From a virus: a stretch of 46,555 bases of DNA. The translations under genes and the position numbers were made by a program. A model generated the notes under the pieces. That model ran no database searches and was not told the DNA's origin. It worked only from the letters and a program-made list of their open reading frames with translations. Below, one piece after another: positions 1,115 through 45,996 of the stretch. Numbering within the stretch: position 1 is the stretch's first letter; each line of letters opens with the position of its first letter. The DNA lies in the IMG/VR virus record IMGVR_UViG_3300036886_000301, positions 1-46,555 of that record. One strand, written 5' to 3'.

Positions 1115-1249
1115 TAGAGGATAGCTCAGATAGAAGAGCTCCAGTAAAAACAAACGTCTTTTGGTATTACCTTGCTGAATAAGCTGACACTGAGAGATTA
1201 CCGTTAACTAAGGAACTGGCGGCCGGAGGTGCAAATCCTTCTCCTCTAA
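1115..1249 (+). ncRNA. tRNA-like RNA with a Y-RNA-type insert in the anticodon loop
   Basis: The outer parts form a tRNA: acceptor TAGAGGA/TCCTCTA (7 bp), D arm GCTC/GAGC with an 8-base loop, anticodon stem CCAGT/ACTGG, and T arm GGAGG/CCTTC with loop TGCAAAT. In place of a 7-base anticodon loop there are 69 bases (1146-1214). These hold the two halves of the Y-like element of this genome in swapped order: first AACGTCTTTTGG and ACCTTGCT, then AAGCTGACACTGAGAG and ATTACCGTTAAC. GTCTTTT can pair with GAGAGAT. The layout is a tRNA whose anticodon arm is extended by a Ro-binding-type stem, closed by a short loop near GAATA. It is a topological inverse of the RNA at 18514-18648. It could also be a tRNA with an unknown small intron, but 69 bases is far too short for a group I intron. 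Confidence 0.75.
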
Positions 1250-1254
1250 AATAA

Positions 1255-1788
1255 ATGATTGGTATATATATTTTGACTAACATGACCAATAGCTTTAAAT
1301 ACGTTGGTCAATCAACTAATATTAAGCATCGATTCAAGAGTCACAAAAATAAGAAAAAATCTCTTATTGATCAAGCTATAAAAAAATATGGCTGGAAAAA
1401 TTTTCAGACTTACATTTTCGAATGTTGTGAAAAAGATCTGGATTGGCTAGAGATTGAACTAATAAAAATCTTAAATACAATGGCCCCATTTGGTTATAAT
1501 TTAGAGTCAGGAGGAAGCTTATTTAAACATCACAACTCTGAATCTAAAAATAAAATGTCAATCAGAAAAATTGGAAATAAAAATCCAATGAAGCGTTCTG
1601 CTGTTGCTAAAAAACAATCAGAGTCGTTAAAAAACAAATTTATTGGAAACAAAAATTGGAGATGGAAGGGAGAAAATGTTACTGAGCGAACTTTAAGAAA
1701 AAGAAAACAGAAACAAAGAGACGTTTTTAAATTCATAGCTGAACATAAATTACGAAAACAAAAACGAGCGCTATTAATGCATATATGA
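1255..1788 (+). CDS. GIY-YIG homing endonuclease with NUMOD3 repeats
   Basis: The 177-residue product begins with the GIY-YIG core: GIYILTN near the N-terminus, then KYVGQS, with the conserved Arg in RFKSH and a Glu in the helix near residue 68. Basic NUMOD3-type segments (SESKNKMSIRKIGNKNPM and a second copy) follow and usually contact DNA. Such proteins are site-specific nicking or cutting mobile endonucleases. The gene begins 6 bases after one odd tRNA-like RNA and ends 8 bases before another, as expected for an element that targets RNA genes. It is much more AT-rich than the flanking RNAs, which suggests separate acquisition. Confidence 0.88.
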   Translation: MIGIYILTNMTNSFKYVGQSTNIKHRFKSHKNKKKSLIDQAIKKYGWKNFQTYIFECCEKDLDWLEIELIKILNTMAPFGYNLESGGSLFKHHNSESKNKMSIRKIGNKNPMKRSAVAKKQSESLKNKFIGNKNWRWKGENVTERTLRKRKQKQRDVFKFIAEHKLRKQKRALLMHI

Positions 1789-3711: not shown

Positions 3712-4185
3712 ATGTTAAAGAACTTCCGAGATGCTCTAGACGATCAACTAAATGAATCGTTTCTTGTCGACATAATAAAGTGGGCATTATATTTTGCCGG
3801 CGCTATTTGGTTAATATGCAAAGTTTATGGCGGTGGAGATCTTTTTTCGATTGATGCACCAGGTCTTGAGTCGCTTTTAAAAAAATATCACATGCGAAAT
3901 CTTAATTCTAAGCGTGTTAAGAAGATAGTAGAAAAGCATGGTGTAAATATCGCAGACTTTAAAAAGGAAATAAGAAATCCATCTTTTACGAGAGCTATGA
4001 ACAAGTTGTTGATGGCAGCCCAGAAGCTATCCAAAAAAGACACACCACAAAATAAAGATGCAGTCATTAACGCAAAGAAAGAAGTTGAAGAAGCGATAAA
4101 TAGCTTTGAGCCTAAGCAACGAGCTTTGTTCAGAGAGCTAGTGGCAGAATTCGAACCGAATCGACCGCATTCATTTAGCAAATGA
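3712..4185 (+). CDS. Unknown membrane-anchored protein
   Basis: The 157-residue product has one hydrophobic segment near residues 22-40 (WALYFAGAIWLICKVY), then a charged, strongly helical domain. A single N-terminal anchor with a cytoplasmic helical tail is the simplest topology. Both AAGATAAT (3688-3695) and a ribosome site (GAGGTAG) lie upstream. It overlaps the next gene by ATGA. Confidence 0.75.
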   Translation: MLKNFRDALDDQLNESFLVDIIKWALYFAGAIWLICKVYGGGDLFSIDAPGLESLLKKYHMRNLNSKRVKKIVEKHGVNIADFKKEIRNPSFTRAMNKLLMAAQKLSKKDTPQNKDAVINAKKEVEEAINSFEPKQRALFRELVAEFEPNRPHSFSK

Positions 4186-5453
4186 ACCGTAAGACTTGCG
4201 ACCAGATTATAACAAAATACAAAGACTTCTTATCTATACTCCCAAATTATCAAATACTAGGATCCTATGGAAGAGGCGAGTCTGAAATAGGCGATTTAGA
4301 CATTCTTTTCAATAGAGAGCTATTCGATCTTAACGCCTATAAAAAATTCAAGCCCTTGATCAAATCTAACAATATATACCTGGAACGTGACAAAAAACGT
4401 ATTCTCATTAAGGGTCACTTAGACTCACTTAAGATTGAAGCTTATGGCGTTGATAAAAAATACATGTCAGCTTTCAGTTGTCTAATGATAGGGCCACACG
4501 ATCGATTTGATAGACTACTTAAAGATGCAAAGAAGCATGGTTATTATATGACGCACTTTGGTCTACTAAAGTCAAATGAAATCATGGATCGTGAAATGTC
4601 TGAGGATGTATGTTTTGATTCTGAAGATAAAATTCTATTTGACGTGCCCGAAAAGTATGAACGATTCATATATAGCCAACCAATGAATTATGAAATAAGA
4701 GAGTTCAATCTCATTAAAAAGTATTGGAAAAATGAATACTTCTATTGCACAGAAAGATCTTTCTACATTGAGCCGACTACAAGATGTAATAGTAATTGCG
4801 TTATGTGTACAAGAAGAGACACGCCTGCTAGTGATTTAACGTTTGACTCTTTCAAATTCATACTTGATAAGCTTGAACCTTTACATGTAAAATTTTGGGG
4901 TCGAGGTGAATCTCTAATACACAAAGATTGTTGGCGTATGATTGACGAAATGAAAAAACGGGCAATTATAATCTACTTAACGACGAACTTCAACTTGGAC
5001 ATTGATTGGCAAAGTATTTCTAATGCTGATGTTATCTATATATCCCTCCATACATTTAACGAGAAGAACTATTTCAAAATTACTGGTCAGAAAATTAACA
5101 AGGTTTTAGATAACATTTTAAAAGCAAAAAGCATGAGATTGAATATTGCTATAAAAGCCGTCGTTCAAGAAACTAACAAAAACGACATAAATGAATTTAT
5201 AGAAATAGCTGAAAAACATCAAATCAAATATATGGCCACAAACGTTAGACATATAGGTATCCCTCAGAAAACTGATTTCTATAAATGTGCCCAACCAAAC
5301 TTTCCATTCGTTGCAGCTAATGGAGATATTCATCCGTGTTGTATGACACCGGGTAAAATAGGCAACATATTTCAAGATAATATTGACTACACAATAATCA
5401 ATTCCGCTAAAGCCAGAAAATTAGATAGATGTTTGACCTGTGAATTGAACTAG
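4182..5453 (+). CDS. Polymerase-X-like nucleotidyltransferase fused to a radical SAM/SPASM enzyme
   Basis: Two enzyme modules share one 423-residue chain. Residues about 1-165 resemble the palm and thumb of family X DNA polymerases: the nucleotide-binding motif GSYGRGESEIGDLDIL supplies two carboxylates, LKIEAYGV gives a Glu at the third acidic position, and KHGYYMTHFGLLKS matches the family signature near the thumb. Residues about 195-423 are radical SAM. They hold the cluster motif CNSNCVMC (CxxxCxxC), a GRGES stretch, and a C-terminal Cys set (YKCAQ, HPCCM, DRCLTC) like a SPASM auxiliary-cluster domain. Radical SAM/SPASM enzymes usually modify peptides or sugars. The substrate is unknown, and I know of no standard family with this fusion. 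A nucleotidyl-transfer step coupled to radical chemistry is an inference. The gene overlaps its upstream neighbour. Confidence 0.8.
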   Translation: MNRKTCDQIITKYKDFLSILPNYQILGSYGRGESEIGDLDILFNRELFDLNAYKKFKPLIKSNNIYLERDKKRILIKGHLDSLKIEAYGVDKKYMSAFSCLMIGPHDRFDRLLKDAKKHGYYMTHFGLLKSNEIMDREMSEDVCFDSEDKILFDVPEKYERFIYSQPMNYEIREFNLIKKYWKNEYFYCTERSFYIEPTTRCNSNCVMCTRRDTPASDLTFDSFKFILDKLEPLHVKFWGRGESLIHKDCWRMIDEMKKRAIIIYLTTNFNLDIDWQSISNADVIYISLHTFNEKNYFKITGQKINKVLDNILKAKSMRLNIAIKAVVQETNKNDINEFIEIAEKHQIKYMATNVRHIGIPQKTDFYKCAQPNFPFVAANGDIHPCCMTPGKIGNIFQDNIDYTIINSAKARKLDRCLTCELN

Positions 5454-9622: not shown

Positions 9623-10009
9623 ATGGGTAAGGTAAAACAAGTCATAGCTGTTAGAAAAGACTTACACATGAGATGCGGAAAGCAAATTGCTCAAGGAGCT
9701 CACGCTGCGATGAAAGTCTTTTTTGACAAAGGCGAATGGTATGGCCACTCTTTTGAAATCAGCGGACTCTCTGATTCAATGGTTGAGTGGATGAAAGGTG
9801 CTTTCACTAAAGTTGTCGTCGGTGTCAATTCTGAAGATGCTATTTATCAACTAGCTGAAAAAGCCAGAGAAGCGGGAATACCCCACGCTGTCATCATTGA
9901 TTCTGGATTCACTGAGTTTCATGGTAACAAGACTACTACCTGTATTGCCATTGGGCCAGATGACGGCGATAAAATCGACAAGATTACTGGAGATCTAGAA
10001 CTAATATGA
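9623..10009 (+). CDS. pth2: Peptidyl-tRNA hydrolase 2
   Basis: The 128-residue protein matches the archaeal/eukaryotic-type PTH2 family: KQVIAVRKDLHMRCGKQIAQGAHAA at the N-terminus, VVVGVNSEDAIYQLAEKAREAG in the middle, and the signature HAVIIDSGFTEFHGNKTTTCIAIGP. The enzyme releases tRNA from stalled peptidyl-tRNA. Most bacteria use the unrelated Pth1, so a Pth2 in a phage is notable, although jumbo phages are known to carry it. A ribosome site (AGGGAG) precedes it, and it overlaps the next gene. Confidence 0.92.
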   Translation: MGKVKQVIAVRKDLHMRCGKQIAQGAHAAMKVFFDKGEWYGHSFEISGLSDSMVEWMKGAFTKVVVGVNSEDAIYQLAEKAREAGIPHAVIIDSGFTEFHGNKTTTCIAIGPDDGDKIDKITGDLELI

Positions 10010-18424: not shown

Positions 18425-18425
18425 T

Positions 18426-18510
18426 GCCGCAGTGGTGAAATGGCAGACACAACGGTCTTAAGAATCGTTGCTGTGTAAACGGCGTGAGAGTTCAAGTCTC
18501 TCCTGCGGTA
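18426..18510 (+). tRNA. tRNA-Leu (TAA), second copy
   Basis: Acceptor GCCGCAG/CTGCGGT, D arm GTG/CAC, anticodon stem ACGGT/ATCGT with loop CTTAAGA (TAA), variable arm, T arm GAGAG/CTCTC with TTCAAGT, and discriminator A. It lies 3 bases before a Y-RNA-like gene whose D arm is nearly the same. Confidence 0.93.
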
Positions 18511-18513
18511 AAG

Positions 18514-18648
18514 ACTAGCTGACGATAAGAGATTATCGAGAAATTGATATTGCAGGTTCGAAGCCTGCCCCCGTAGCGTAAGCTACCCGGTGGTGGAATG
18601 TGGCAGACACACAATTGGAAGACACAGCTTTTATCATTGCTTGCTAGT
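18514..18648 (+). ncRNA. Y-RNA-like RNA with circularly permuted tRNA-Leu module (YrlA-like)
   Basis: The ends pair as ACTAGC/GCTAGT, then GATAAGAG/CTTTTATC (8 bp). AGCTGAC before the second helix and ATTATCG after it match the Y-like array at 32.5-34.5 kb. Inside lies a tRNA in permuted order: anticodon 3' strand AATTG (18542-18546), T arm GCAGG/CCTGC with TTCGAAG, acceptor stem GTAGC/GCTAC capped by a GTAA tetraloop, TG, Leu-type D arm GTG/CAC, and anticodon 5' strand CAATT (18612-18616). The anticodon loop therefore opens into the Y stem. Known bacterial YrlA RNAs carry a tRNA-like module on a Ro-binding stem. The D arm nearly matches the adjacent tRNA-Leu, suggesting local origin by duplication and permutation. 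Confidence 0.85.
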
Positions 18649-18665
18649 TTATTTGAGGAGCTAAT

Positions 18666-20504: not shown

Positions 20505-21197
20505 ATGTCATTACGCGGCTATGAAAAAACATTCCGCATAACTACGCCCAACTACCGAGTGCCAGGCAAACTGACGCTGTCTGATAAAGATCAGAAAGTG
20601 CTTCTCAGAGGGACGCTTGAGATCACTGAAAAAGTTGATGGCGCTAACACGGCAATTCTTCGTGGTGAAGGTTCCGAGTGGACACTTCAGAAGAGGAGAG
20701 GTATTGCAACACAGCAACATCCTCAGTTTTCTTTTTTCTGGAGCTGGGCTCGGGCCAACGAGGACAAGATTCTTAGCATTCCAGAAAATTGGATCATCTA
20801 CGGTGAGCTAACCTACGCCAAGCACAATATTTTCTATGATCACTTGCCATCTTATTTCTTGGTCTTCGATGTTTGGACTGGCAAGGAATATTTGGACACG
20901 AATGATAGACTGGATCTTTGCTCCGAGCTAGAACTTCAGCATGTCCCAATGCTTTATTACGGTCGCCTTGAAGGCGATGAAAACGAACATCTTCATCAAT
21001 TGGAAAAACTGATTGGGCCTTCAAAAGTTTCAACTACTGTGACCATGGAAGGCATAGTTGTAAAGAATGCTGTCAAACAAATGAGGGGCAAACTAGTTCG
21101 ACCCGAGTTCATGAAGCAGCTTGAAGAAGACGATCATTGGCTATACAAAAGATTGGTCAAGAATCAACTGACACCAGGAGTCGATGCTTACAACTGA
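20505..21197 (+). CDS. RNA ligase (Rnl2-like nucleotidyltransferase)
   Basis: The 230-residue protein has the covalent nucleotidyltransferase motif I EKVDGAN with the AMP-accepting Lys at residue 43. Further motifs follow: WTLQKRR, WIIYGELTY (motif III), YFLVFDVW (motif IIIa), MEGIVVKN (motif IV), and a basic strand GKLVRPE (motif V). It matches the adenylyltransferase domain of small RNA ligases. Such enzymes seal nicked RNA and in phages often repair cleaved tRNAs. With many tRNAs and a Ro60 gene here, a role in RNA repair or quality control is plausible. Base composition is GC-richer than in its neighbours. Confidence 0.88.
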   Translation: MSLRGYEKTFRITTPNYRVPGKLTLSDKDQKVLLRGTLEITEKVDGANTAILRGEGSEWTLQKRRGIATQQHPQFSFFWSWARANEDKILSIPENWIIYGELTYAKHNIFYDHLPSYFLVFDVWTGKEYLDTNDRLDLCSELELQHVPMLYYGRLEGDENEHLHQLEKLIGPSKVSTTVTMEGIVVKNAVKQMRGKLVRPEFMKQLEEDDHWLYKRLVKNQLTPGVDAYN

Positions 21198-31486: not shown

Positions 31487-32431
31487 CTAATAATTAACGG
31501 TTAAGAACGACATAGGGTCAATAGCTACACCATCCTTGCGAATCTCATAGTGCAAGTGGTAGCCAGTAGCCATGCCCGTATTACCAAGTTGTCCTATCTT
31601 ATCTCCTCGTTTAATGTGTTGGCCCATAGTAACTAATACTTTGTCTAAGTGAGCGTATCTTGTTTCAAAGCTATATTTATGCCTTACGGTGATGAAATTT
31701 CCATAATCAGAAGATTGCCCCTCTTGTCCTGGGCCCCATGTGCCTATTTCCACTACTACGCCATCAGCGGTAGCAAATACAGGATCATCTGGATTACCAG
31801 CTATGTCAATACCAGCATGGTAACTGAGCTTTTTCTCATTAAAAGGATCCGGTCTAAAACCATATCCCGATGTGATCCTGGGTATTCCCGATTTAAGCGT
31901 AGGCCAGACAAACGGGAAGTTTTGAATGAAATCTTGTCTAGCAACTAAATAATCTTTTACTTCGCCCAACCACTTTTGGTCATCTCCCATGGTGTCTACA
32001 GCGCTGCGGAGCTGAAGCAATACAGCTTCGTCACTATCAGCAACTTTGATTGACGAACCACCAACGGCTAAATAAGTATCCTTATTATAGAGCATTTGTA
32101 CAATGTCTTTAATAGAAGATCGGAACTCGTTTTTGAGTTTTAGAACGTTTTGGTATTGATCTTTGTAGTCTTTGTTGATGTTTTTCTGATCGGCTATTTG
32201 CACTTGCAAAGCCTCTTTATCAGCATCAAACTTCGCACCTGCGATTGCAGTGCTACCAAACAGAATGATAAAAGCTATGATTGCAGTGGAGGATGCAATA
32301 ATGAGGAGAACTGCTGATAGCTTTACCTTTGTTTGGAGGAATTTAGCCCAGACCTGCTTCAAGCGACCCGTGCGATGGCCATTCATGAAGTGGACTATGG
32401 CATCTAAAAACGTATGTATTTTCATAATCAA
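31487..32431 (-). CDS. M23 family peptidase, membrane-anchored
   Basis: 314 residues. A basic N-terminus and one hydrophobic helix near residues 37-60 precede a coiled-coil stretch (about 75-115). The C-terminal LytM domain has the zinc motif HAGIDIAG (HxxxD), the ARYAHLDKV strand and the terminal HLHYEIR (HxH). These enzymes cut peptidoglycan cross-bridges. The membrane anchor and coiled coil resemble host-type cell wall hydrolases or virion-associated lysins. An alternative ATG lies two codons further in. Transcription runs away from the Y-RNA-like array. Confidence 0.9.
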   Translation of the reverse strand: MIMKIHTFLDAIVHFMNGHRTGRLKQVWAKFLQTKVKLSAVLLIIASSTAIIAFIILFGSTAIAGAKFDADKEALQVQIADQKNINKDYKDQYQNVLKLKNEFRSSIKDIVQMLYNKDTYLAVGGSSIKVADSDEAVLLQLRSAVDTMGDDQKWLGEVKDYLVARQDFIQNFPFVWPTLKSGIPRITSGYGFRPDPFNEKKLSYHAGIDIAGNPDDPVFATADGVVVEIGTWGPGQEGQSSDYGNFITVRHKYSFETRYAHLDKVLVTMGQHIKRGDKIGQLGNTGMATGYHLHYEIRKDGVAIDPMSFLTVNY

Positions 32432-32549
32432 AAATATGCCTCCTGTAGGGGGTTTATCTTGGTTGCAGCTCTCTACAAAATACTTCTAAATAATATAGAA
32501 GATTTCCTCAAGTTTTCCAAAATATGCTCAAGATACTAATATAACGCAT

Positions 32550-32659
32550 ACTTAAAAACGACTAAAGCTGACAGCGAGAAATTACCGTTTACCACAATCG
32601 AACGTCTTTGGAAACAAAGAATCATTTTTTGCTATTTCTTGCTTTAGTTATTCTTAAGT
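32550..32659 (+). ncRNA. Y-RNA-like element A
   Basis: Nested pairing: ACTTAA/TTAAGT, then ACTAAAGC/GCTTTAGT (8 bp), a 5' bulge TGACAGC, then GAGAAAT/ATTTCTT, followed by TTACCGTTTACC. The apical part holds CTTTG-GAAA-CAAAG. The bulge, second helix and TTACCG are shared with elements D, F, G and H and with the RNAs at 1115 and 18514. The strand is inferred from the shared primary motif and from the downstream Ro60 gene. Confidence 0.75.
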
Positions 32660-32690
32660 AGGCACATACTTAAAGCTGTAAAGGCTATTA

Positions 32691-32760
32691 AAACTTGCTT
32701 GTTTAGGGAGGTGATATAAACTACAAGCTAAACCAAGTTTTTGAGGACTGATTAGTCCTC
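32691..32760 (+). ncRNA. Two strong hairpins between Y-like elements A and B
   Basis: AAACTTG-GTTTAG pairs with CTAAAC-CAAGTTT (13 bp with a 3-base bulge), followed directly by the perfect hairpin GAGGACT-GATT-AGTCCTC. The start at 32663 (TAAAGCTGTAAAG) may be a decayed copy of the Y-like 5' motif. They may be part of a longer RNA or processing signals. Confidence 0.5.
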
Positions 32761-32900
32761 TCTTAGCGTTAGTTCTGAAAAGTCTAGCTGTTCTAGGGTG
32801 ATTACCGACAAACTGAATATCGCGGCCCCATAGCTATAGTGGCATGGAGGCTAGGTTCTTGACGGAGTCAATGGCACTGACTAATGAATGCCCGCTAAGA
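32761..32900 (+). ncRNA. Y-RNA-like element B
   Basis: Closed by TCTTAGCG/CGCTAAGA (8 bp) and TTAGT/ACTAA. Inside is the family motif TAGCTGTTCTAGGGTG followed by ATTACCGACAAAC. It is larger and more branched than the other elements and contains a hairpin TTGAC-GGA-GTCAA. The match to the family is in sequence more than in helix layout, so confidence is lower. Confidence 0.55.
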
Positions 32901-32937
32901 AATTCATCCTATTTTCCTTTTGCTAGCATTTTTTGTT

Positions 32938-32977
32938 GTATGCCGCTGAATCAACGGCGACTTGGCGGCATACTTTT
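32938..32977 (+). terminator. Strong hairpin, possible terminator after element B
   Basis: GTATGCCGC/GCGGCATAC (9 bp perfect, 18-base loop) followed by TTTTC. A TGCTAGCA palindrome with a T6 run lies just upstream (32921-32934). Confidence 0.6.
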
Positions 32978-33270
32978 CACAAGAATCAGAAGGGGACGAA
33001 TTACGACCCCTTGGCCTTAGGGCCTTTATCTGGTTCTGTTCTTTGAAACTTTTAGGGTTGGTAAGTCTATATCTGTTGAGACCAGAAGTAGCTGCGCTTC
33101 ATCTTACACTTAAATGATGAAATAATACAGTTAATTTGGTTTAATAAATAGAGATGATTATTATGGCAGGCGAAAGGATGACTCAATAGACGAAGCCTTA
33201 TATTTATAGAAGACAAAATGCTTCTATAAAATTTAATGGTAAAAATAGGCGGACTTGGCATTGAAAAACG
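32978..33270. other. Gene-poor stretch with small hairpins
   Basis: No convincing reading frame. Visible structures are AGGGG/CCCCT around an ACGAATTACGA loop near 32991 and ATAGAAG/CTTCTAT near 33205. I cannot assign a function. It may hold decayed Y-like copies or the promoter for the endonuclease gene that follows. Confidence 0.4.
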
Positions 33271-33310
33271 AGAAGCTGACTTTTTAATCTGAAATCAGCT
33301 TTCTTTTTTT
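33271..33310 (+). terminator. Terminator upstream of the HNH gene
   Basis: AAGCTGA/TCAGCTT stem followed by a run of seven T. It separates the first part of the RNA array from the HNH gene. Confidence 0.75.
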
Positions 33311-33327
33311 ACGAAAACTCATAAGTT

Positions 33328-33909
33328 ATGAGACCAAAAACTTTTTTAGAAAAAACAATTCTTTCAAAAAATTGTTTGGATTGCAACGAACAAATACAAG
33401 TGGTTGTTAGATCCGACGGAAGTAATATTCACAAGAAAGATCTATTTCTTTTTAATTCTCGAAAATATTGTAAAGTATGTGGAGACAAGAAAAGACTTGA
33501 GGGGAAACGACTAAAAGGTTTTAGACATAAGCCAACTTCAATTGAAACTAAAATAGAGCTTTCGAAAGCAGCCGTTAAACATCGCAACGAGAGATATGAC
33601 AGTTTTACTTCAATAGATCAGATATCATTGATAATTGGCAAGAGAATAATAAAACGCTTAAATAAGGGCTGTTCTATTTGTGGGTGGAATAAAGGTCGTG
33701 GTGATTACCACCACATAAAATCAAAAAGTGATGGAGGCAAAAATTCATACTCTAATATCACTTACATTTGTCCAAATTGTCATAGACTTATACACTCTGG
33801 TACTTTGAAGGAAAGTTTAATAAGCCTAGACAATTACATTAATATAGAAGAAATAAAAACCTTTGTCAAAAGCAAAGGTAAAAGTAAAAGCATATATAAA
33901 GATGAGTAA
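33328..33909 (+). CDS. HNH endonuclease inserted in the Y-RNA-like array
   Basis: 193 residues. The N-terminus has CLDCNEQ and CKVCGDKK, a Cys4 zinc motif. A basic linker leads to the HNH domain near residues 118-155: CSICGWNKGRGDYHHIKSKSDGGKNSYSN split around the His pair, then CPNCHRLIH. A Lys-rich tail follows. It stops exactly 1 base before element D and sits between Y-like elements, so it looks like a homing endonuclease that uses this RNA locus as its site. It is AT-rich compared with the RNA elements. Confidence 0.86.
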   Translation: MRPKTFLEKTILSKNCLDCNEQIQVVVRSDGSNIHKKDLFLFNSRKYCKVCGDKKRLEGKRLKGFRHKPTSIETKIELSKAAVKHRNERYDSFTSIDQISLIIGKRIIKRLNKGCSICGWNKGRGDYHHIKSKSDGGKNSYSNITYICPNCHRLIHSGTLKESLISLDNYINIEEIKTFVKSKGKSKSIYKDE

Positions 33910-34024
33910 GAAGCTGAATGGAAAAGGTTACCGGATAACAAACCAATCTTAAAAATTAGTTTCAGTGGGATTCGATGCCCACAACCCTAGCAATAGGGAC
34001 TTACCTTTTTCAGACTATTGCTTC
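33910..34024 (+). ncRNA. Y-RNA-like element D with partial tRNA-like module
   Basis: GAAGC/GCTTC, bulge TGAAT, GGAAAAGGT/ACCTTTTTC (9 bp), then TTACCGG. The apical part holds a T-arm-like hairpin GTGGG/CCCAC with loop ATTCGATG, and a second stem CCCTA-GCAA-TAGGG that would stand for a capped acceptor stem. No D arm is seen. It resembles a reduced version of the 18514 RNA. The T-run TTTTT after 34024 would serve as a terminator. Confidence 0.75.
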
Positions 34025-34039
34025 TTTTTATTCGCCCAG

Positions 34040-34073
34040 TCTGCCCCTCTTCTTTTAAGAGGGGATGGGCAGA
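34040..34073 (+). other. Strong hairpin between Y-like elements
   Basis: TCTGCCC/GGGCAGA with an inner CCCCTCTT/AAGAGGGG alternative pairing. It could be a processing site or an independent small RNA. A further hairpin, GAATC..GATTC with ACAG/CTGT, lies at about 34078-34113. Confidence 0.55.
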
Positions 34074-34123
34074 AATGAATCTGAAACAGTGCTAGACGCT
34101 GTAGTAGGATTCCCCCGGAGCGA

Positions 34124-34225
34124 GATTCACTCCATTTGTTCAAAGCTGTCCGGAGGACGTTACCGTTATACAAACAAAAAACGTTCTTCACCAAGTTTGC
34201 TTTGATCAAATGGGCTGAGTCAATC
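34124..34225 (+). ncRNA. Y-RNA-like element F
   Basis: A long imperfect stem: GATT/AATC, ACTC/GAGT, CATTTG/CAAATG, CAAAGC/GCTTTG. Then the bulge TGTCCG and GAGGACGTT/AACGTTCTT (with G-T pairs), followed by TTACCGTTATAC. The bulge and helix are like those of vertebrate Y RNA (GCTGGTCCGAAGG), where a bulged C marks the Ro60 site. That comparison is from memory and is by sequence only. Confidence 0.78.
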
Positions 34226-34247
34226 TCTTTTATTGTTTGGATTAACT

Positions 34248-34306
34248 CAAAGCTGTTCGAAGGACTTTATCGCAATTTGACATAGTTCTTTAACTCCCTT
34301 GCTTTG
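34248..34306 (+). ncRNA. Y-RNA-like element G
   Basis: CAAAGC/GCTTTG, bulge TGTTCG, AAGGACT/AGTTCTT, then TTATCGCAATTTGACA. A T-rich tail (TTTATTTTT) follows. The stretch AGCTGTTCGAAGGAC is strikingly close to the start of human Y1 as I recall it. Base pairs change in step with elements F and H (GGACT with AGTTC, GGACGT with ACGTTC). Confidence 0.78.
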
Positions 34307-34385
34307 TTTATTTTTCATGAATCTGCAGTGGCGATTCATGTGTATCTCCTTTTACTTAGGATAAGATTAATCCTGAGTTCACACA
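34307..34385 (+). other. Linker with two hairpins
   Basis: CATGAATC/GATTCATG (8 bp perfect, 34316-34340) and CTTAGGAT/ATCCTGAG (34355-34377) lie between elements G and H. There is no reading frame. They may punctuate processing of a polycistronic precursor. Confidence 0.5.
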
Positions 34386-34449
34386 AGAGCTGACAGAGGG
34401 ACGTTATCGTTAAATGGTAACAAAAATACGTTCTTCATATCCTTGCTCT
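34386..34449 (+). ncRNA. Y-RNA-like element H
   Basis: AGAGC/GCTCT, bulge TGACAG, AGGGACGT/ACGTTCTT, then TATCGTTAAATGG with an inner GTTA/TAAC hairpin. The TTTTT of TCTTTTTC follows. It is the last array member before the Ro60 leader. Confidence 0.78.
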
Positions 34450-34647
34450 ATCTTTTTCTATAAACAAAGCAAAGACGTATTACATTTTTCACACCTGAGT
34501 CCAAGGACCTTAACCTCTAAGGACAAGGGCGCATAAGTATGGTTGTTAGCCAAGCCGTATATACCTTATTTAATAGAAGATTTCTCGACAGTTAGTCGGG
34601 AGACTAATAAAGTTTTTGTCCTATTATAGGACTGAAGGAGGAAACAC
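34450..34647 (+). promoter_or_regulatory. Structured leader of the Ro60-like gene
   Basis: The 198-base leader has no gene. It carries hairpins TTAGTC-GGGA-GACTAA (34592-34607) and GTCCTAT/ATAGGAC (34618-34632), the latter with a preceding T5 run, right before the ribosome site GAAGGAGG (34634-34641). The last hairpin could modulate ribosome access, for example if bound by the Ro protein or a Y-like RNA. Confidence 0.55.
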
Positions 34648-36264
34648 ATGAGTGCACCGTATTCTAAGTCTACTAGCAAAGTTCGAGCTACTCGAACACC
34701 ACAGTCAATGCCAATTCCAGGTCGAGAAGCAGAGATGACTCAAAACCTAGCCGGCGGATTCAGCTTCAAAGCTGATGAGTGGCAGGCCTTGCGAAGATGG
34801 TTGCTTGTAGGTAGCATGTCTGGTGCGTATTACCAGAATGCACAGGAAATGACCGACGGCAATAAGAAGTTGCTTATGAAGCTCATCGCTTCAGATCCAG
34901 CGCGAGTTGGACAGGAGATTCTTGACGCTTCAAAGAAGGGCATTTCTGTTCACACGCCGATTTATGCTCTTACCTATTTGTCTATGGGAGACATGAAGGC
35001 AAAGAACGTTTTCAAGGAAGTGTTTGCCAACGTCATCCGAAATGGCAGCCACTTGTATGAGTTCTTCAACTACACGAAGAACGAGCGAGGATTGGGTTCA
35101 CTGATCCACAAGACGGTCGAAAACTGGATTTCAGGTAAGGACGCCAAAGAGCTGGAGTATCAGTTCCTGAAGTATCAGAGTAGGTATGACTGGAGCGCAA
35201 AGGACATCCTTCGAACTGTCAGGCCTACCCCAAGGACTGATCTGCAGAAAGCAGTGTTCAACTGGGTAATCGGTGGCACCAAGAAGAATCCTCTAATGGA
35301 AAGCTTCCCGGTCGAGCTTGCTCGAATCAACGCTTACGAGCAGTTGAAGAAAGGTGCAAGTGAAACCGACGTCATCGACGCCATCCAGAGGTTCAAGATG
35401 ACTTGGGAAATGATGCCTGGTAACCTAAAGATGACCAATAAGATCTGGGAAGCCCTCTTCCTTCAGATGCCTGTCGGCGCGACTATCAGGAACTTGGGTA
35501 ACCTTACTGACAAGGATGTCTTTAAGAACAAGGCGAATCTAGATCTGCTTGAGGCAAGATTCTCGAAGGAGAATTTGGCAAAAGCCTATATTCACCCAAT
35601 CGTATTCGCATCTGCCCTGAAGATTTACGGCATGGGTGGCGAAGGCGGAAAGAGCAAGCTCAGATGGTCACCAATCGCTCGAGTAAAGGATATCATGGAA
35701 GACGGTATTGAGAAGTGTTTCGACGCTCTCGAACCAACTGGCCTTGATTTCTTCTATGCCCTCGACATATCAAGCTCTATGTTGGGGAATAGCGTTGGCC
35801 AATTGCACATGAGTCCATACGAGGTCGAAGGCGTCATGGCGTTAGCTTCTGTCCGATCGGAGAAGAATTACTTCGTCGGCGGATTCAACACTAACTTCGT
35901 AGAGATTCCGAAGTTCACCAAGAAGATGGGTTACAGGGATTCAATGAATTTCTGGCACGGTGGCTTCGGTGGAACAGATGCGGCCCAAGCCTATCTCTAT
36001 GCTCTCAAGAACAGGATCAAGACAGACGTCTTCGTATTCTTTACAGATTCGGAGTCGTGGGCCGGGTATCGACACCCAGCTGAAGCTCTGAAGGAATACA
36101 GGTCGAAGATCAATCCCAAGGCAAAAGCGATCTATACGACACTTACGGCCTACAGTGATCACATTTCTCTTGTAGATCCAAAAGATCCAAAGAGTTATGA
36201 TATCGCAGGGTTCACCGGCGAAACTCCAAAAATGATCCAGTTAATGGCCAAAGACCTTCTCTAA
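34648..36264 (+). CDS. rsr: Ro60/Rsr-like TROVE domain protein
   Basis: At 538 residues this is the full size of Ro60 proteins. The N-terminus has the family block TPQSMPIPGREAEMTQN followed by AGGFSFKADEW. Residues about 20-365 form the TROVE ring of HEAT-like helices that binds Y RNAs on its outer face and misfolded RNA ends in its hole. Residues about 366-538 form the vWA domain with a complete metal site: D373-x-S375-x-S377 in ALDISSSM, a Thr in GFGGTDAAQ, and FFTDSES. Known bacterial Rsr proteins bind Y RNAs encoded beside the gene and act with exonucleases in RNA decay and stress. The Y-RNA-like array directly upstream fits that exactly. Codon use is GC-richer than in most neighbours, hinting at strong expression. 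A GNRA-loop terminator follows. Confidence 0.96.
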   Translation: MSAPYSKSTSKVRATRTPQSMPIPGREAEMTQNLAGGFSFKADEWQALRRWLLVGSMSGAYYQNAQEMTDGNKKLLMKLIASDPARVGQEILDASKKGISVHTPIYALTYLSMGDMKAKNVFKEVFANVIRNGSHLYEFFNYTKNERGLGSLIHKTVENWISGKDAKELEYQFLKYQSRYDWSAKDILRTVRPTPRTDLQKAVFNWVIGGTKKNPLMESFPVELARINAYEQLKKGASETDVIDAIQRFKMTWEMMPGNLKMTNKIWEALFLQMPVGATIRNLGNLTDKDVFKNKANLDLLEARFSKENLAKAYIHPIVFASALKIYGMGGEGGKSKLRWSPIARVKDIMEDGIEKCFDALEPTGLDFFYALDISSSMLGNSVGQLHMSPYEVEGVMALASVRSEKNYFVGGFNTNFVEIPKFTKKMGYRDSMNFWHGGFGGTDAAQAYLYALKNRIKTDVFVFFTDSESWAGYRHPAEALKEYRSKINPKAKAIYTTLTAYSDHISLVDPKDPKSYDIAGFTGETPKMIQLMAKDLL

Positions 36265-43168: not shown

Positions 43169-43486
43169 ATGAAACTCTTTGATATTGCTAATATGAGCCG
43201 AAGAGGACACTGGATAATTGCCGAAAGTGAAGAAGATGCAAAGGCAGTATTTTCTAATCTCTTCCCTCGTTCAAAAATTAGAGACGTAGTTGAACTTGAT
43301 GCAAGCAAAGAAGACACATCACTTACTATGCTCTTGAACGGTGAACATAAAGGATGGATTGGCAAAGAAGCGACTGTAGTGACAGCTCAAAAAATGCTCC
43401 AACAACTTCGCGATACAGTTTTACTTAAACAACCAGTCAAAATACCCCAAGGCAAATGGTTTTTTCTGAAAGAACATACCAAATAA
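43169..43486 (+). CDS. Unknown 105-residue protein
   Basis: I start at ATG 43169 after AAAAGGGG, not an in-frame TTG 15 bases upstream. Alpha/beta fold likely, with a helix EEDAKAVFSNLF. It ends 11 bases before the vault protein gene and is probably co-transcribed with it, so it may be a partner. Confidence 0.7.
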   Translation: MKLFDIANMSRRGHWIIAESEEDAKAVFSNLFPRSKIRDVVELDASKEDTSLTMLLNGEHKGWIGKEATVVTAQKMLQQLRDTVLLKQPVKIPQGKWFFLKEHTK

Positions 43487-43497
43487 AAGGAGATAAT

Positions 43498-45996
43498 ATG
43501 GAACCATCAAGAGATCGAGAAAGAGACTTAATTCTCGGTCCAGGAGAATATGCCAATATCCTGGATGAAACAAAAGGGCACGTGACCGTCTGGGTCGGCC
43601 CATCAAAAGCTAGCTTGTCACAGACTGACCGACCAGTTCAGTTCGACCCCAAGGTAAGGAAATTTGTTGCTTGTAAATTGGAAGAGTCAATTTTGACTTT
43701 CCCGTTCGCAGAGAAGGGGTCTTACATTGTTCTTCACAATCCTACCCTCACCAACTCAAGCGATCCCATCCATCCCAATCAGGGCTCTAATGTCCACACC
43801 AAATTGGACCAGGGCAACAAGATCAACATTGAAGGACCACAAACTTTCGCTTTGTATCCTGGTCAATTTGCTGTGACTCTGTCCGGCCATCGCATGCGAA
43901 GCAATCAATATCTGATTGTTCGAGTCTATGACGAAGACGCTGCTAGAGAAAACTGGGGCAAAGCAACTATGAAGCTCCAGACCAAGGGTAAGGATGGCAA
44001 GGACCCAACTGAAGCGGAAAAAGCTGAAGCACTCGGCAAGATGCCTGACCTGACAATGGGCCGATTGCACATCATCGAAGGCACCAAAGTTTCATTCTAC
44101 ATTCCGCCAACTGGTATCGAAGTCATTGCTGATGAAGTTGGTCAATACGTTCGAGATGCCATCACTCTAGAACGACTAGAATATTGTATCCTTCTCGACG
44201 AAGACGGTAACAAGAGATACGTCCAGGGACCAGACGTGGTATTCCCACGCCCAACTGAAAATTTTGTTGAGAAGAGCAATTCCAGAAAATTCAAAGCTAT
44301 CGAGCTCAATGAGTTGATGGGTATCTACGTCAAAGTCATTGCTGACTATGATGATTACAAAGCTGGTGATGAACTTTTCATCACTGGCAAAGACCAGAAG
44401 ATCTACTACCCTCGACCCGAACACGCCATCGTGAAGTATGGCGATCAAATGGTCTCTTACGCTATTGCCATTCCAGAAGGAGAGGCAAGATATATTCTCA
44501 ACAGAAACACTGGAGAGATCAACCTGAAGAAGGGTCCGGCAATGATGCTACCCGATCCCAGAAGCGAAGTGGTAGTGAGGAGAATTCTTTCACCCAAGCA
44601 AGTAGAGCTCTGGTTCCCTGGCAACACCGAAGCCAAAGCCTACAACAACGCTCTCAGCGACATCTCCTCAAGAGAAGAGAGCTCGATGAACTACGTTTCT
44701 GAGAAGAGCCTCGGAAGGTCCATGGCAATGGCCACCTCAATGAGAACCGCCAAGCTTCAAGGCATTGATGAAACCGAGACCTATGGTCTAGCGACAACAG
44801 AAGAGTTAAAGAGGGGAAGTAAATTCACTCCGCCCCGCACAGTTACCCTAGACACCAAGTATGATGGAGCAGTAGCCATCGATGTCTGGCCAGGATACGC
44901 CGTTCAAGTTGTAAGCAAGACTGGAAAAAGAAAAGTTATCGTTGGTCCACAGGTCTATCTGTTGGAATACGATGAAACTCTAGAGAAGATGTCTTTCTCT
45001 ATGGGTACACCGAAGAACGAAGACAGACTGAAGAACGATGTCTATCTAAGAGTTCTCCAGAATAGCATTTCCGACTTGATCAAGGTTGAGACCAAGGATC
45101 TTTGCCCAATGAACATTTTGGTTTCCTACCGAGTCAACTTCGAGGGCGAGAAAGAACTCTGGTTTAACGTAGAGAACTACGTCAAATTCCTCACTGATCA
45201 CATTCGATCATTGCTCAGGAATAGAGTCAAGCAGCTTGGCATTGAACAGTTCTACAGCAACTACATCGACATCATCCGTGATACAATCCTCGGCAAACAT
45301 CCAGAAGGTGCCGAACCGAGGCCCGGTCTTTCGTTCAAAGAAAATGGAATGAGAGTCTATGATCTTGAAGTTCTTGGTATTCAAATCGAGAACGAAGAGA
45401 TTTCTGAGCTCTTGGAAGAATCTCAGCATGAGGCAGTTTCACAAAGGTTGATGGTTGAGAAGAAGCAGAACGAGCTGGTAACCACTCAGAAGACTGAGAA
45501 GATCCAGAGAGAAATCGAAGAAGCTAGAACTGAAACCCTCAGGAATAAGCTCCAACTTCAAATCGGTAACTGCGATCTCCAACTGAAAGCCGGACTCGCC
45601 GACCTCAACGTCAAGGCAGAAGTTGAGAAACAGAGGATCCAAGATGTCAGCGTCAAGCAGAACATCGAGCTCGAGATCGAGACCAAGAGGTTAGATCAGG
45701 ACAAGCTCAAAGAGAAACAGACTCTAGAGCTAGCCAACGAAAAACTCGAACAGCTGATCAAAGAAATGAACACCGAAGCTGATACAACGATTCGGAAGGC
45801 GCAGGCAGTCAGCCCGGACCTTATCGCTGCTCTTCAGGCCTTTGGGGACAAAGAGCTTATGGGCAAACTGGCTGCAAACCTCAACGTTCTCAGTATTCTC
45901 GGCGGAGAAAGCGTTCTGGAAATCTTACAGAAGCTTCTTGGCGGCACGAACATTGCTGAAGCTCTCAAGAACATGAACTTTCACCTACACAAGTAG
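43498..45996 (+). CDS. mvp: Major vault protein homologue
   Basis: The 832-residue product matches eukaryotic major vault protein (about 890 residues) over its whole length. Residues about 1-455 show successive MVP-type beta repeats (LGPGEYANILDE, VTVWVGPSKASL, FALYPGQFAV, LNELMGIYVKVIADYDDY, FITGKDQKIYYPRPEHAIV). Residues about 459-635 match the SPFH-like shoulder: AIDVWPGYAVQVVSKTG, KVIVGPQVYLLEYDE, LVSYRVNFE, NYVKFLTDHIRSLLRNRV. From about 638 a long coiled coil forms the cap helix, ending in the cap-ring region AVSPDLIAALQAFGDKELM. In eukaryotes 78 copies form the hollow vault. I start at ATG 43498 after AAAGGAGATAAT; an upstream in-frame ATG lies in the preceding gene. Codon use is GC-rich, suggesting high expression. 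A terminator follows. Confidence 0.94.
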   Translation: MEPSRDRERDLILGPGEYANILDETKGHVTVWVGPSKASLSQTDRPVQFDPKVRKFVACKLEESILTFPFAEKGSYIVLHNPTLTNSSDPIHPNQGSNVHTKLDQGNKINIEGPQTFALYPGQFAVTLSGHRMRSNQYLIVRVYDEDAARENWGKATMKLQTKGKDGKDPTEAEKAEALGKMPDLTMGRLHIIEGTKVSFYIPPTGIEVIADEVGQYVRDAITLERLEYCILLDEDGNKRYVQGPDVVFPRPTENFVEKSNSRKFKAIELNELMGIYVKVIADYDDYKAGDELFITGKDQKIYYPRPEHAIVKYGDQMVSYAIAIPEGEARYILNRNTGEINLKKGPAMMLPDPRSEVVVRRILSPKQVELWFPGNTEAKAYNNALSDISSREESSMNYVSEKSLGRSMAMATSMRTAKLQGIDETETYGLATTEELKRGSKFTPPRTVTLDTKYDGAVAIDVWPGYAVQVVSKTGKRKVIVGPQVYLLEYDETLEKMSFSMGTPKNEDRLKNDVYLRVLQNSISDLIKVETKDLCPMNILVSYRVNFEGEKELWFNVENYVKFLTDHIRSLLRNRVKQLGIEQFYSNYIDIIRDTILGKHPEGAEPRPGLSFKENGMRVYDLEVLGIQIENEEISELLEESQHEAVSQRLMVEKKQNELVTTQKTEKIQREIEEARTETLRNKLQLQIGNCDLQLKAGLADLNVKAEVEKQRIQDVSVKQNIELEIETKRLDQDKLKEKQTLELANEKLEQLIKEMNTEADTTIRKAQAVSPDLIAALQAFGDKELMGKLAANLNVLSILGGESVLEILQKLLGGTNIAEALKNMNFHLHK

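What the first reader, a model, noticed from the sequence alone, without database searches (positions are those of the whole stretch)
32550..36264. Ro60/TROVE gene with an upstream array of Y-RNA-like elements
At least five elements (A, D, F, G, H), and probably B, share the 5' motif AGCTG, a bulge of about 5-7 bases, a helix of the GGAC/GTTC kind, TTAYCG, and a closing TTGCTY. The helices are kept while their bases change (GGACGT with ACGTTC, GGACT with AGTTC, GAGAAAT with ATTTCT), which signals selection on structure. They sit directly upstream of a full-length Ro60 gene, as known bacterial Y RNAs do. Elements F and G look unusually like vertebrate Y RNA 5' ends.
Basis: partly seen in the sequence, partly recalled or inferred. 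Interest (0 to 1): 0.95.

Follow-up and report, generated by a model that had tools for sequence, protein, structure and literature searches.

The report
Phage Ro60 with tRNA-shaped Y RNAs
A large uncultured phage carries the RNA-binding ring protein Ro60 with at least seven likely partner RNAs; two are built from tRNA parts, one in the known circularly shuffled order and one in ordinary tRNA order with the partner-binding hairpin in place of the anticodon loop, an arrangement also found at most cyanobacterial Ro60 genes examined here.

Summary
The finding holds and is larger than reported. The 34648-36264 gene is a full-length Ro60 (TROVE + vWA). A covariance model built only from other phages finds five Y-type RNAs in the reported region (my A, E, F, G, H; E 6e-7 to 1e-5) and a sixth at 18.5 kb. 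C is probable, B fails, D is a plain hairpin. Covariation is strong in related phages. No vertebrate Y RNA model matches.

Phage Ro60 with Y RNAs, and the circularly permuted tRNA mimic YrlA, are already known. What looks new is the tRNA link. Element P (18512-18650) is a permuted tRNA mimic directly after a tRNA-Leu. Element T (1115-1249) has ordinary tRNA order, with the Ro60-binding hairpin replacing the anticodon loop. A model of this non-permuted class, built without the window, finds T at E = 7e-14, and the class in 79 of 80 cyanobacterial Ro60 loci (15 of them training loci) and several phages. Across the window and pieces of three related contigs, 7 of 8 Y elements away from Ro60 start 3-5 positions after a tRNA.

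Best reading: Y RNAs made and matured as tRNAs, linking Ro60 to tRNA-handling enzymes. Expression, binding and processing are untested.

The parts
34648..36264 (+). Ro60 (TROVE + vWA), 538 aa
   Evidence: 67/60/41% identity to the Ro60 of phage contigs G004/G005/G006
34140..34205 (+). Y RNA F, plain type
   Evidence: R1 E 2.3e-6 at 34141-34204; folding z -2.53
34248..34306 (+). Y RNA G, plain type
   Evidence: R1 E 1.4e-6; z -2.04
34384..34451 (+). Y RNA H, plain type
   Evidence: R1 E 6.8e-7 at 34385-34450; z -3.16
32560..32649 (+). Y RNA A, plain type with a hairpin in the loop
   Evidence: R1 E 1.2e-5 at 32563-32646; z -4.85
33908..34026 (+). Y RNA E: Y stem enclosing a T-arm-like hairpin and a closed acceptor-like hairpin, no clear D-arm
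   Evidence: R1 E 6.3e-7 at 33909-34025; z -3.28; same layout at L190:2163-2286 of phage G004
32781..32932 (+). probable Y RNA C with a large inner domain
   Evidence: both Y stems present by eye; counterpart at L190:1606 with a compensatory change in the lower stem; not found by R1, z +0.44
18512..18650 (+). Y RNA P: Y stem enclosing T-arm, closed acceptor hairpin and D-arm (YrlA-type circularly permuted tRNA mimic)
   Evidence: R1 E 7.5e-5 at 18514-18648
18425..18511 (+). tRNA-Leu(taa) directly before P; by eye its D-arm TGGTGAAATGGCAGACACA resembles P's TGGTGGAATGTGGCAGACACA
   Evidence: (ARAGORN)
1115..1249 (+). Y RNA T: tRNA in ordinary order (7 bp acceptor, D-arm, T-arm) with the Y module in place of the anticodon loop; a 5 bp anticodon stem CCAGT/ACTGG is possible by eye but is not in the minimum-energy fold
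   Evidence: R2 E 7.1e-14, 64.2 bits, full length; cloverleaf+Y in 0 of 100 shuffled windows; fold
33328..33909 (+). HNH endonuclease ORF inside the array, probably a mobile insertion, not part of the RNA system
   Evidence: Pfam HNH 1e-9

Best explanation
The window encodes a phage Ro60 and a set of at least seven Y RNAs that share one Ro60-binding module (lower stem, asymmetric internal loop, 9 bp upper stem, conserved TTAYC and TTGC) but carry different effector parts: bare hairpins (A, F, G, H), a T-arm/acceptor stub (E), a circularly permuted tRNA mimic (P) and a tRNA in normal order whose anticodon loop is the Y module (T). Shown by sequence and covariation: the protein family, the RNA structures, their conservation next to Ro60, and the two tRNA topologies. 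Inferred: (1) Ro60 binds each module; (2) bare Y RNAs gate the Ro60 ring, while tRNA-like ones tether it to enzymes that handle tRNA ends or to host PNPase, as in known bacterial Ro60 complexes; (3) T would be matured as a tRNA by RNase P and tRNA 3' processing, and Y elements lying just after a tRNA would get their 5' end from that tRNA's 3' processing; (4) during infection the complex would sort, protect or degrade structured or damaged RNA, next to the phage's own tRNAs and RNA ligase. Tandem copies of the T type, read in the shifted register, give the permuted YrlA order, which offers a simple origin for YrlA's permutation.
For: Ro60 identity. Module: covariation 24 against 7.6; a model without window sequences finds 6 window elements and 74 hits in 62 viral Ro60 loci, all 74 on the Ro60 strand and 73 upstream of it, 42 of 62 loci hit (five hits are training sequences, L245 repeats L202, L197 with five hits is the window's own phage, and further loci are near copies of each other). 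A search by RNA pattern alone gave three clear tRNA-mimic contigs (picked by eye from 119 stretches); 3 of these 3 encode Ro60 (the other stretches were not checked). T class: R2, built from 24 non-window units, finds T at 7.1e-14; 123 cells with changes on both sides against 36.3; RNAalifold predicts the arms unaided; Rfam's tRNA model matches 5 of 12 sister units end to end above its threshold. Units delimited without using the acceptor: 100 of 106 have 7/7 acceptor pairs within the unit against 7 of 50 between neighbours. In 146 cyanobacterial genomes 15 carry the class and all 15 carry Ro60 (18 carry Ro60; one of the 15, G007, is a genome I started from). tRNA-linked Y elements: 7 of 8 away from Ro60 (7 of all 20) start 3-5 positions after a tRNA, about 0.003 expected per element.
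Against: No transcript, binding or processing data. T is a poor tRNA by Rfam's model (no match at E <= 5), its D-loop lacks GG, its T-loop reads TGCAAAT, its possible anticodon stem is not in the best fold, and its folding z is only -1.69. Within its Ro60 clade T is seen in one phage (the window and the colinear contig G001, same motif letters and spacing); the fetched pieces of its relatives G004 (58 of 78 kb) and G005 (57 of 158 kb) show no unit above the tRNA range. 20 of 62 viral loci have no R1 hit. 3 of 18 Ro60-bearing cyanobacterial genomes lack the class and in one it lies downstream. The training set of R2 was picked by perfect acceptor pairing, so its 100% acceptor pairing is by choice; one search is the test free of that choice. 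Models were calibrated briefly, so E-values are rough. PNPase tethering is borrowed from other bacteria.
Confidence: 0.78

Rival explanations
1. T and its relatives are ordinary tRNA genes with a long intron or inserted hairpin in the anticodon loop, and serve as tRNAs after splicing.
For: Rfam's tRNA model matches 5 of 12 sister units in four loci as tRNAs with a long insert; the acceptor, D- and T-arms are kept.
Against: The insert is the covarying Y module; whole-genome hits (9 in 3 genomes) all lie at Ro60 loci and all 15 genomes carrying it carry Ro60; RNAalifold finds no conserved anticodon stem. ARAGORN calls no whole unit in 8 loci, but one of its two L226 calls overlaps the 3' half of a unit, and it also misses an ordinary tRNA in L257 that Rfam finds, so its silence is weak.
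Confidence: 0.06
2. The tandem units are really permuted YrlA RNAs and the normal-order reading is an artefact of reading an array in the wrong register.
For: Rfam YrlA gives four sub-threshold matches (27-41 bits, gathering 69) in three loci, all four across the junction of two units; in L257 both readings overlap.
Against: Acceptor pairing 7/7 in 100 of 106 within units against 7 of 50 between; T in the window stands alone and I see no second unit beside it; the Y module is closed by its own short loop.
Confidence: 0.1
3. The RNAs are decoys that absorb host anticodon nucleases or tRNA enzymes, with Ro60 as a stabiliser.
For: No anticodon to cut; the phage also carries an RNA ligase and 11 tRNAs. 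PMC7790460 (passages read) raises the idea of YrlA as inhibitor of an anticodon nuclease.
Against: No direct test; bare Y RNAs (A, F, G, H) have nothing tRNA-like.
Confidence: 0.2
4. Vault-like particle: the phage's major vault protein, Ro60 (TROVE) and Y RNAs form one RNP.
For: A major vault protein homologue lies at 43456-45996; vault TEP1 has a TROVE domain (recalled).
Against: The pair is not kept outside this phage: of 3 other records with the vault protein none has a full Ro60 (G003 has only a weak partial match in the vWA part), and none of 8 Ro60-bearing relatives shows the vault protein; these 8 and G003 are contigs that may be fragments, so absence is weak.
Confidence: 0.04

Closest known systems
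Bacterial Y RNAs with Ro60/Rsr (Deinococcus, Salmonella YrlA, RYPER)
   Same: Ro60 orthologue with adjacent Y RNAs; permuted tRNA mimic (element P); modular Ro60-binding stem plus effector domain
   Different: At least seven elements; some far from Ro60 directly after tRNA genes; a normal-order tRNA form (T) besides the permuted one
Phage-encoded Ro60 and Y RNAs (mycobacteriophages and other phages)
   Same: Same gene pair; read by eye, arrays upstream of Ro60 are present in Magritte, Tonenili, FuzzBuster and Forza
   Different: Ro60 only 21-31% identical in the rows listed; the window's group lies next to cyanobacterial Ro60 plus phage L204 (28-row group 100/100); no normal-order unit in 8 named phages by my detector, and no R2 score above the tRNA range there
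tRNA (RF00005)
   Same: Acceptor, D-arm, T-arm and, in most sister units, D-loop and T-loop letters
   Different: No anticodon; a Ro60-binding hairpin in its place
tmRNA
   Same: tRNA-shaped RNA with another functional part inserted (recalled comparison)
   Different: Insert is a Ro60-binding hairpin, not an mRNA-like stretch; no tmRNA reported in the window

Membership tests
Ro60 / Rsr (TROVE) | TROVE ring plus vWA domain, full length | tested here: met
Bacterial Y RNA | Encoded next to Ro60 on the same strand | tested here: met
   A, C, E, F, G, H; not met for P and T, which lie 16 and 33 kb away on the same strand. In other loci 73 of 74 hits upstream
Bacterial Y RNA | Conserved Ro60-binding stem with covariation | tested here: met
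   on related phages; window elements match that model
Bacterial Y RNA | Bound by Ro60 in the cell | not testable with these tools
   needs pull-down
YrlA (RF02553), element P | T-arm, acceptor, D-arm in permuted order inside the Y stem | tested here: met
   permuted topology of YrlA from PMC11472068 (passages read)
YrlA (RF02553), element P | Reaches Rfam's gathering score | tested here: not met
   no RF02553 match at E <= 5; described as YrlA-like, not as an Rfam member
YrlA (RF02553), element T | Permuted order | tested here: not met
   order is acceptor, D, Y, T, acceptor
tRNA, element T | Cloverleaf with anticodon | tested here: not met
   three arms present but no anticodon loop; no RF00005 match
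Non-permuted tRNA-Y class (model R2) | Full-length match to R2 well above tRNA genes | tested here: met
   64.2 bits against 32.4 for the best tRNA gene in the window and about 49.5 for the best tRNA gene elsewhere
Vertebrate Y RNA (RF00019) | Rfam match | tested here: not met
   none at E <= 10 in 32400-34700

The most novel reading that the evidence does not exclude
There is an unrecognised, widespread class of Y RNA that is a whole tRNA in normal order with its anticodon loop replaced by the Ro60-binding hairpin. It is matured by the tRNA machinery, is the main Y RNA of cyanobacteria, has moved between cells and phages, and by tandem duplication and a register shift has given rise, more than once, to the circularly permuted YrlA.
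Probability: 0.5. Interest if true: 0.85.

Novelty: new variant of a known kind. Interest (0 to 1): 0.72.

Why it matters
Bacterial Y RNAs of the YrlA type are circularly permuted tRNA mimics; I found no account of how a tRNA came to be permuted, though the core papers could not be read. A normal-order form, in tandem at cyanobacterial Ro60 genes and coexisting with the permuted form in one phage, supplies a plausible intermediate and testable predictions: RNase P leader removal, CCA at the 3' end, Y RNA 5' ends set by the tRNA before them. It would also help explain why phages keep Ro60 together with large tRNA sets, and points to cultivable cyanobacteria in which to test the function of Ro60.

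Tried and rejected
B (32669-32704) and D (33268-33309) as Y RNAs: rejected (D folds well, z -3.05, but as a plain hairpin and T-run). Vertebrate Y RNA kinship: no Rfam match. Vault particle: vault protein and Ro60 were not found together outside this phage. The window's Ro60 alone as a query of genome contigs found nothing; the four-sequence profile did. Promoters in the array: 8 found, 6.8 expected, uninformative; terminator-like sites 8 found against 1.4 expected, none placed to end A, F, G or H. Literature: Chen 2014 (again by its PMC id), Wang 2018, Sim and Wolin 2018 and Sim 2020 are not held, so I could not check whether they describe the normal-order form. Searches on Y RNA with cyanobacteria (2 papers), with Nostoc (0), on YrlA/Rsr/permuted (20) and on TROVE/Ro60/Nostoc/Anabaena (12 listed of 2,273) showed no title or abstract start that describes it; I opened only passages of some. 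That is no proof of absence.

A strict pattern detector of my own found permuted elements in 14 and normal-order elements in 9 of 63 viral loci, and in 2 and 52 of 80 cyanobacterial loci; model R2 is more sensitive (79 of 80, my count of the table; L310 is without a hit). On the Ro60 tree the three labels need at least 7 changes, and the normal-order label at least 5; 53 of 84 rows carried no label, labels come from 3 kb flanks only, clustering of the permuted label was not clear (40 of 500 shuffles as low), and L240 has a very long branch. There I put L217, L220 and L259 (identical proteins) in the normal-order group on their R2 score, not on the detector.
Full report
What is there. The window is a 46,555-base virus record, probably a fragment: contigs of 62.8 and 106 kb carry the same Ro60 (100%). 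It has 11 tRNA genes by ARAGORN. The gene at 34648-36264 encodes 538 aa with a TROVE domain and a Ro60-type vWA domain, and its family profile matches solved Ro60 and Rsr chains. Upstream lie elements with a shared layout. In the six elements used for alignment A4, all from other phages, this is a lower stem ending in AGC or GGC, an asymmetric internal loop, a 9 bp upper stem running into GGTTAYC, a loop, and a 3' strand with CTTGC.

Is it more than chance? The motif occurs 8 times against 0.13 expected, six of these in the 32.5-34.5 kb region. In A4, 95.7% of cells pair, 10 of 16 pairs have changes on both sides, and 24 cells do so (7.6 in shuffles; slid controls 2-5). A seventh aligned element, G004a, was dropped before this count because the aligner set its 3' strand one base off. 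Model R1 from the six, without any window sequence, finds exactly six window places at E <= 7.5e-5: A, E, F, G, H and 18514-18648. B scores 0.69; C and D are not found. C keeps both stems by eye and has a counterpart in phage G004; I list it as probable.

Two elements far from Ro60. At 18512-18650 (P) the Y stem encloses a T-arm, an acceptor stem closed by a GTAA loop, and a D-arm that by eye is close to that of the tRNA-Leu ending at 18511. This is the circularly permuted tRNA layout known for YrlA (PMC11472068, passages read; PMC8394870, passages read), although Rfam's YrlA model does not reach it. At 1115-1249 (T) the order is that of an ordinary tRNA: TAGAGGA/TCCTCTA acceptor, D-stem, T-arm; the anticodon loop is replaced by about 70 bases holding the Y module with its 3' strand first and closed by a short loop. 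The best fold has acceptor, D-arm, Y hairpin and T-arm; a possible anticodon stem CCAGT/ACTGG is seen by eye only. Such a cloverleaf with a long insert arises 0.03 times per shuffled window, and never with the Y motif in 100 shuffles.

Relatives. A profile of the four Ro60s then gave 63 viral and 80 cyanobacterial loci (the latter the best 80 of 197). R1 found 74 elements at E <= 0.1 in 62 of the 63 viral loci (L198, a further contig of the window's phage, was left out): all 74 on the Ro60 strand, 73 upstream, 42 loci with at least one. Five of the 74 are training sequences, L245 repeats L202, five are the window's own elements on L197, and several loci are near copies of each other, so the loci are not independent.

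The non-permuted class. Phage contig G006 (L194/L204) has three tandem normal-order units and one plain Y RNA directly upstream of Ro60. A detector (T-arm, 7/7 acceptor pairs, D-stem, Y motif inside) found on the Ro60 strand 1 site in the window, 11 in 63 viral loci, 107 in 80 cyanobacterial loci and 0 in 8 named phages; on the opposite strands 0 in each of these sets. RNAalifold on 24 units (6 viral, 18 cyanobacterial, none of the window; the three of G006 included) predicts acceptor, D-stem, T-stem and the Y cap, with both-side changes in all 7 acceptor pairs; in the full structure 123 cells change on both sides against 36.3 in shuffles and 11-24 in slid controls. Since these 24 were chosen by acceptor pairing, I also cut units by D-arm, Y motif and T-arm alone in the cyanobacterial set: 106 units in 52 of 80 loci, 100 with 7/7 acceptor pairs inside the unit, against 7 of 50 between neighbouring units (in the viral set 7 of 10 inside, only one neighbour pair). 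So the unit is the normal-order tRNA rather than a permuted RNA read wrongly. Model R2 from the 24 finds T in the window at 64.2 bits, E 7.1e-14, about twice the best tRNA gene there. In viral loci outside the training set, units above the tRNA range (best tRNA gene about 49.5 bits) include L226, L217/L220/L259, L237, L212 and L248; others between 50 and 58 bits are unclear. In the cyanobacterial loci R2 gives 244 matches at E <= 1e-9, all on the Ro60 strand, in 79 of 80 loci by my count (15 loci gave training units; 64 of the other 65 match); ten lie downstream of Ro60. In 146 cyanobacterial genomes 17 had a match; two are 73-base ordinary tRNAs, the other 15 all have Ro60, out of 18 with Ro60. 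In 14 the copies are upstream on the same strand, in G053 downstream; G030, G050 and G136, with more distant Ro60s, have none. Of 12 units in four loci Rfam 15 labels 5 as tRNA above threshold (45-50 bits) and gives YrlA only below threshold, four times, each across a unit junction. ARAGORN reports no whole unit in 8 loci (two calls in L226, one overlapping a unit's 3' half).

Link to tRNA genes. Of 20 R1 elements in the window and the fetched pieces of G004-G006, 8 are away from Ro60 (window, G004, G005); 7 of these start 3-5 positions after the last base of a tRNA gene on the same strand, the exception being L189:1737 (81 tRNA calls in about 165 kb, one counted twice where pieces overlap; about 0.003 expected per element). 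This suggests that the Y RNA 5' end is made by tRNA 3' processing, and T would be made wholly as a tRNA. T itself starts 32 positions after tRNA-Cys.

History. In a tree of 84 Ro60 proteins the window groups with L203 (G004), L199 (G005) and L201 (100/99), next to phage L204 plus cyanobacteria (100/99); the 28 rows together have 100/100 (root drawn at the midpoint). The two topologies are scattered: at least 7 label changes on this tree, though 53 rows have no label. The window has both. Tandem normal-order units read from Y to Y give the permuted order, so a shift in where the RNA is cut would turn one into the other.

How it works, and what is known. Phage Ro60 is known: 341 phage records match, and PMC12282133, PMC7765460 and PMC7824862 (passages read) speak of Y RNAs, YrlA or TROVE proteins in phages. 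In Deinococcus, Y RNA tethers Rsr to PNPase (PMC7790460, PMC4726728, passages read). I take over that mechanism: bare Y RNAs as gates, tRNA-like ones as tethers to enzymes that know tRNA. That part is inference; the structures and their conservation are shown.

Against. No expression or binding data; T fails Rfam's tRNA model and lacks GG in its D-loop; within its clade it is known from the window's phage only, and the searched pieces of G004 and G005 show none. The core papers could not be read, so the novelty claim for the normal-order class is provisional.

Noticed in passing
window 43456-45996: Phage-encoded major vault protein homologue, 846 aa (MVP_shoulder 5e-25; solved vault protein 7.6e-10), about 46% identical to proteins of the uncultured 735 kb and 462 kb phages LR756501 and LR756500.
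   Followed up: partly
window 1255-1788: ORF that looks by eye like a GIY-YIG homing-type nuclease, starting 6 positions after element T; several HNH- or GIY-YIG-like ORFs (most named by eye) sit near tRNAs in this window.
   Followed up: no
window 20505-21197, 9623-10009, 4182-5453: RNA ligase, PTH2 peptidyl-tRNA hydrolase, and an ORF with radical SAM, SPASM and a weak polymerase-beta-type palm match below Pfam's cut-off.
   Followed up: no
L027 6471-6538 (Gordonia phage Forza): Annotated tRNA-Gln that by eye reads as part of a permuted Y RNA (T-arm, closed acceptor, Y motif GCTGATTCGGTTACC).
   Followed up: partly
window 33107-33207: Weak match to U6 spliceosomal RNA (21.1 bits, E 0.03, gathering 44); probably chance.
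   Followed up: no
L257 2616-2680: A phage Y RNA matches the Rfam nematode sRNA family ceN72-3_ceN74-2 just under its threshold (33.9 bits, gathering 38).
   Followed up: no
L188 15239-15311 (phage contig G004): ARAGORN calls a tRNA-Pyl with anticodon cta, possibly a stop-codon suppressor; recoding not examined.
   Followed up: no
cyanobacterial loci, about 4620-5040 (e.g. L293, L330): Further R2 matches downstream of Ro60, so some arrays flank the gene on both sides.
   Followed up: no
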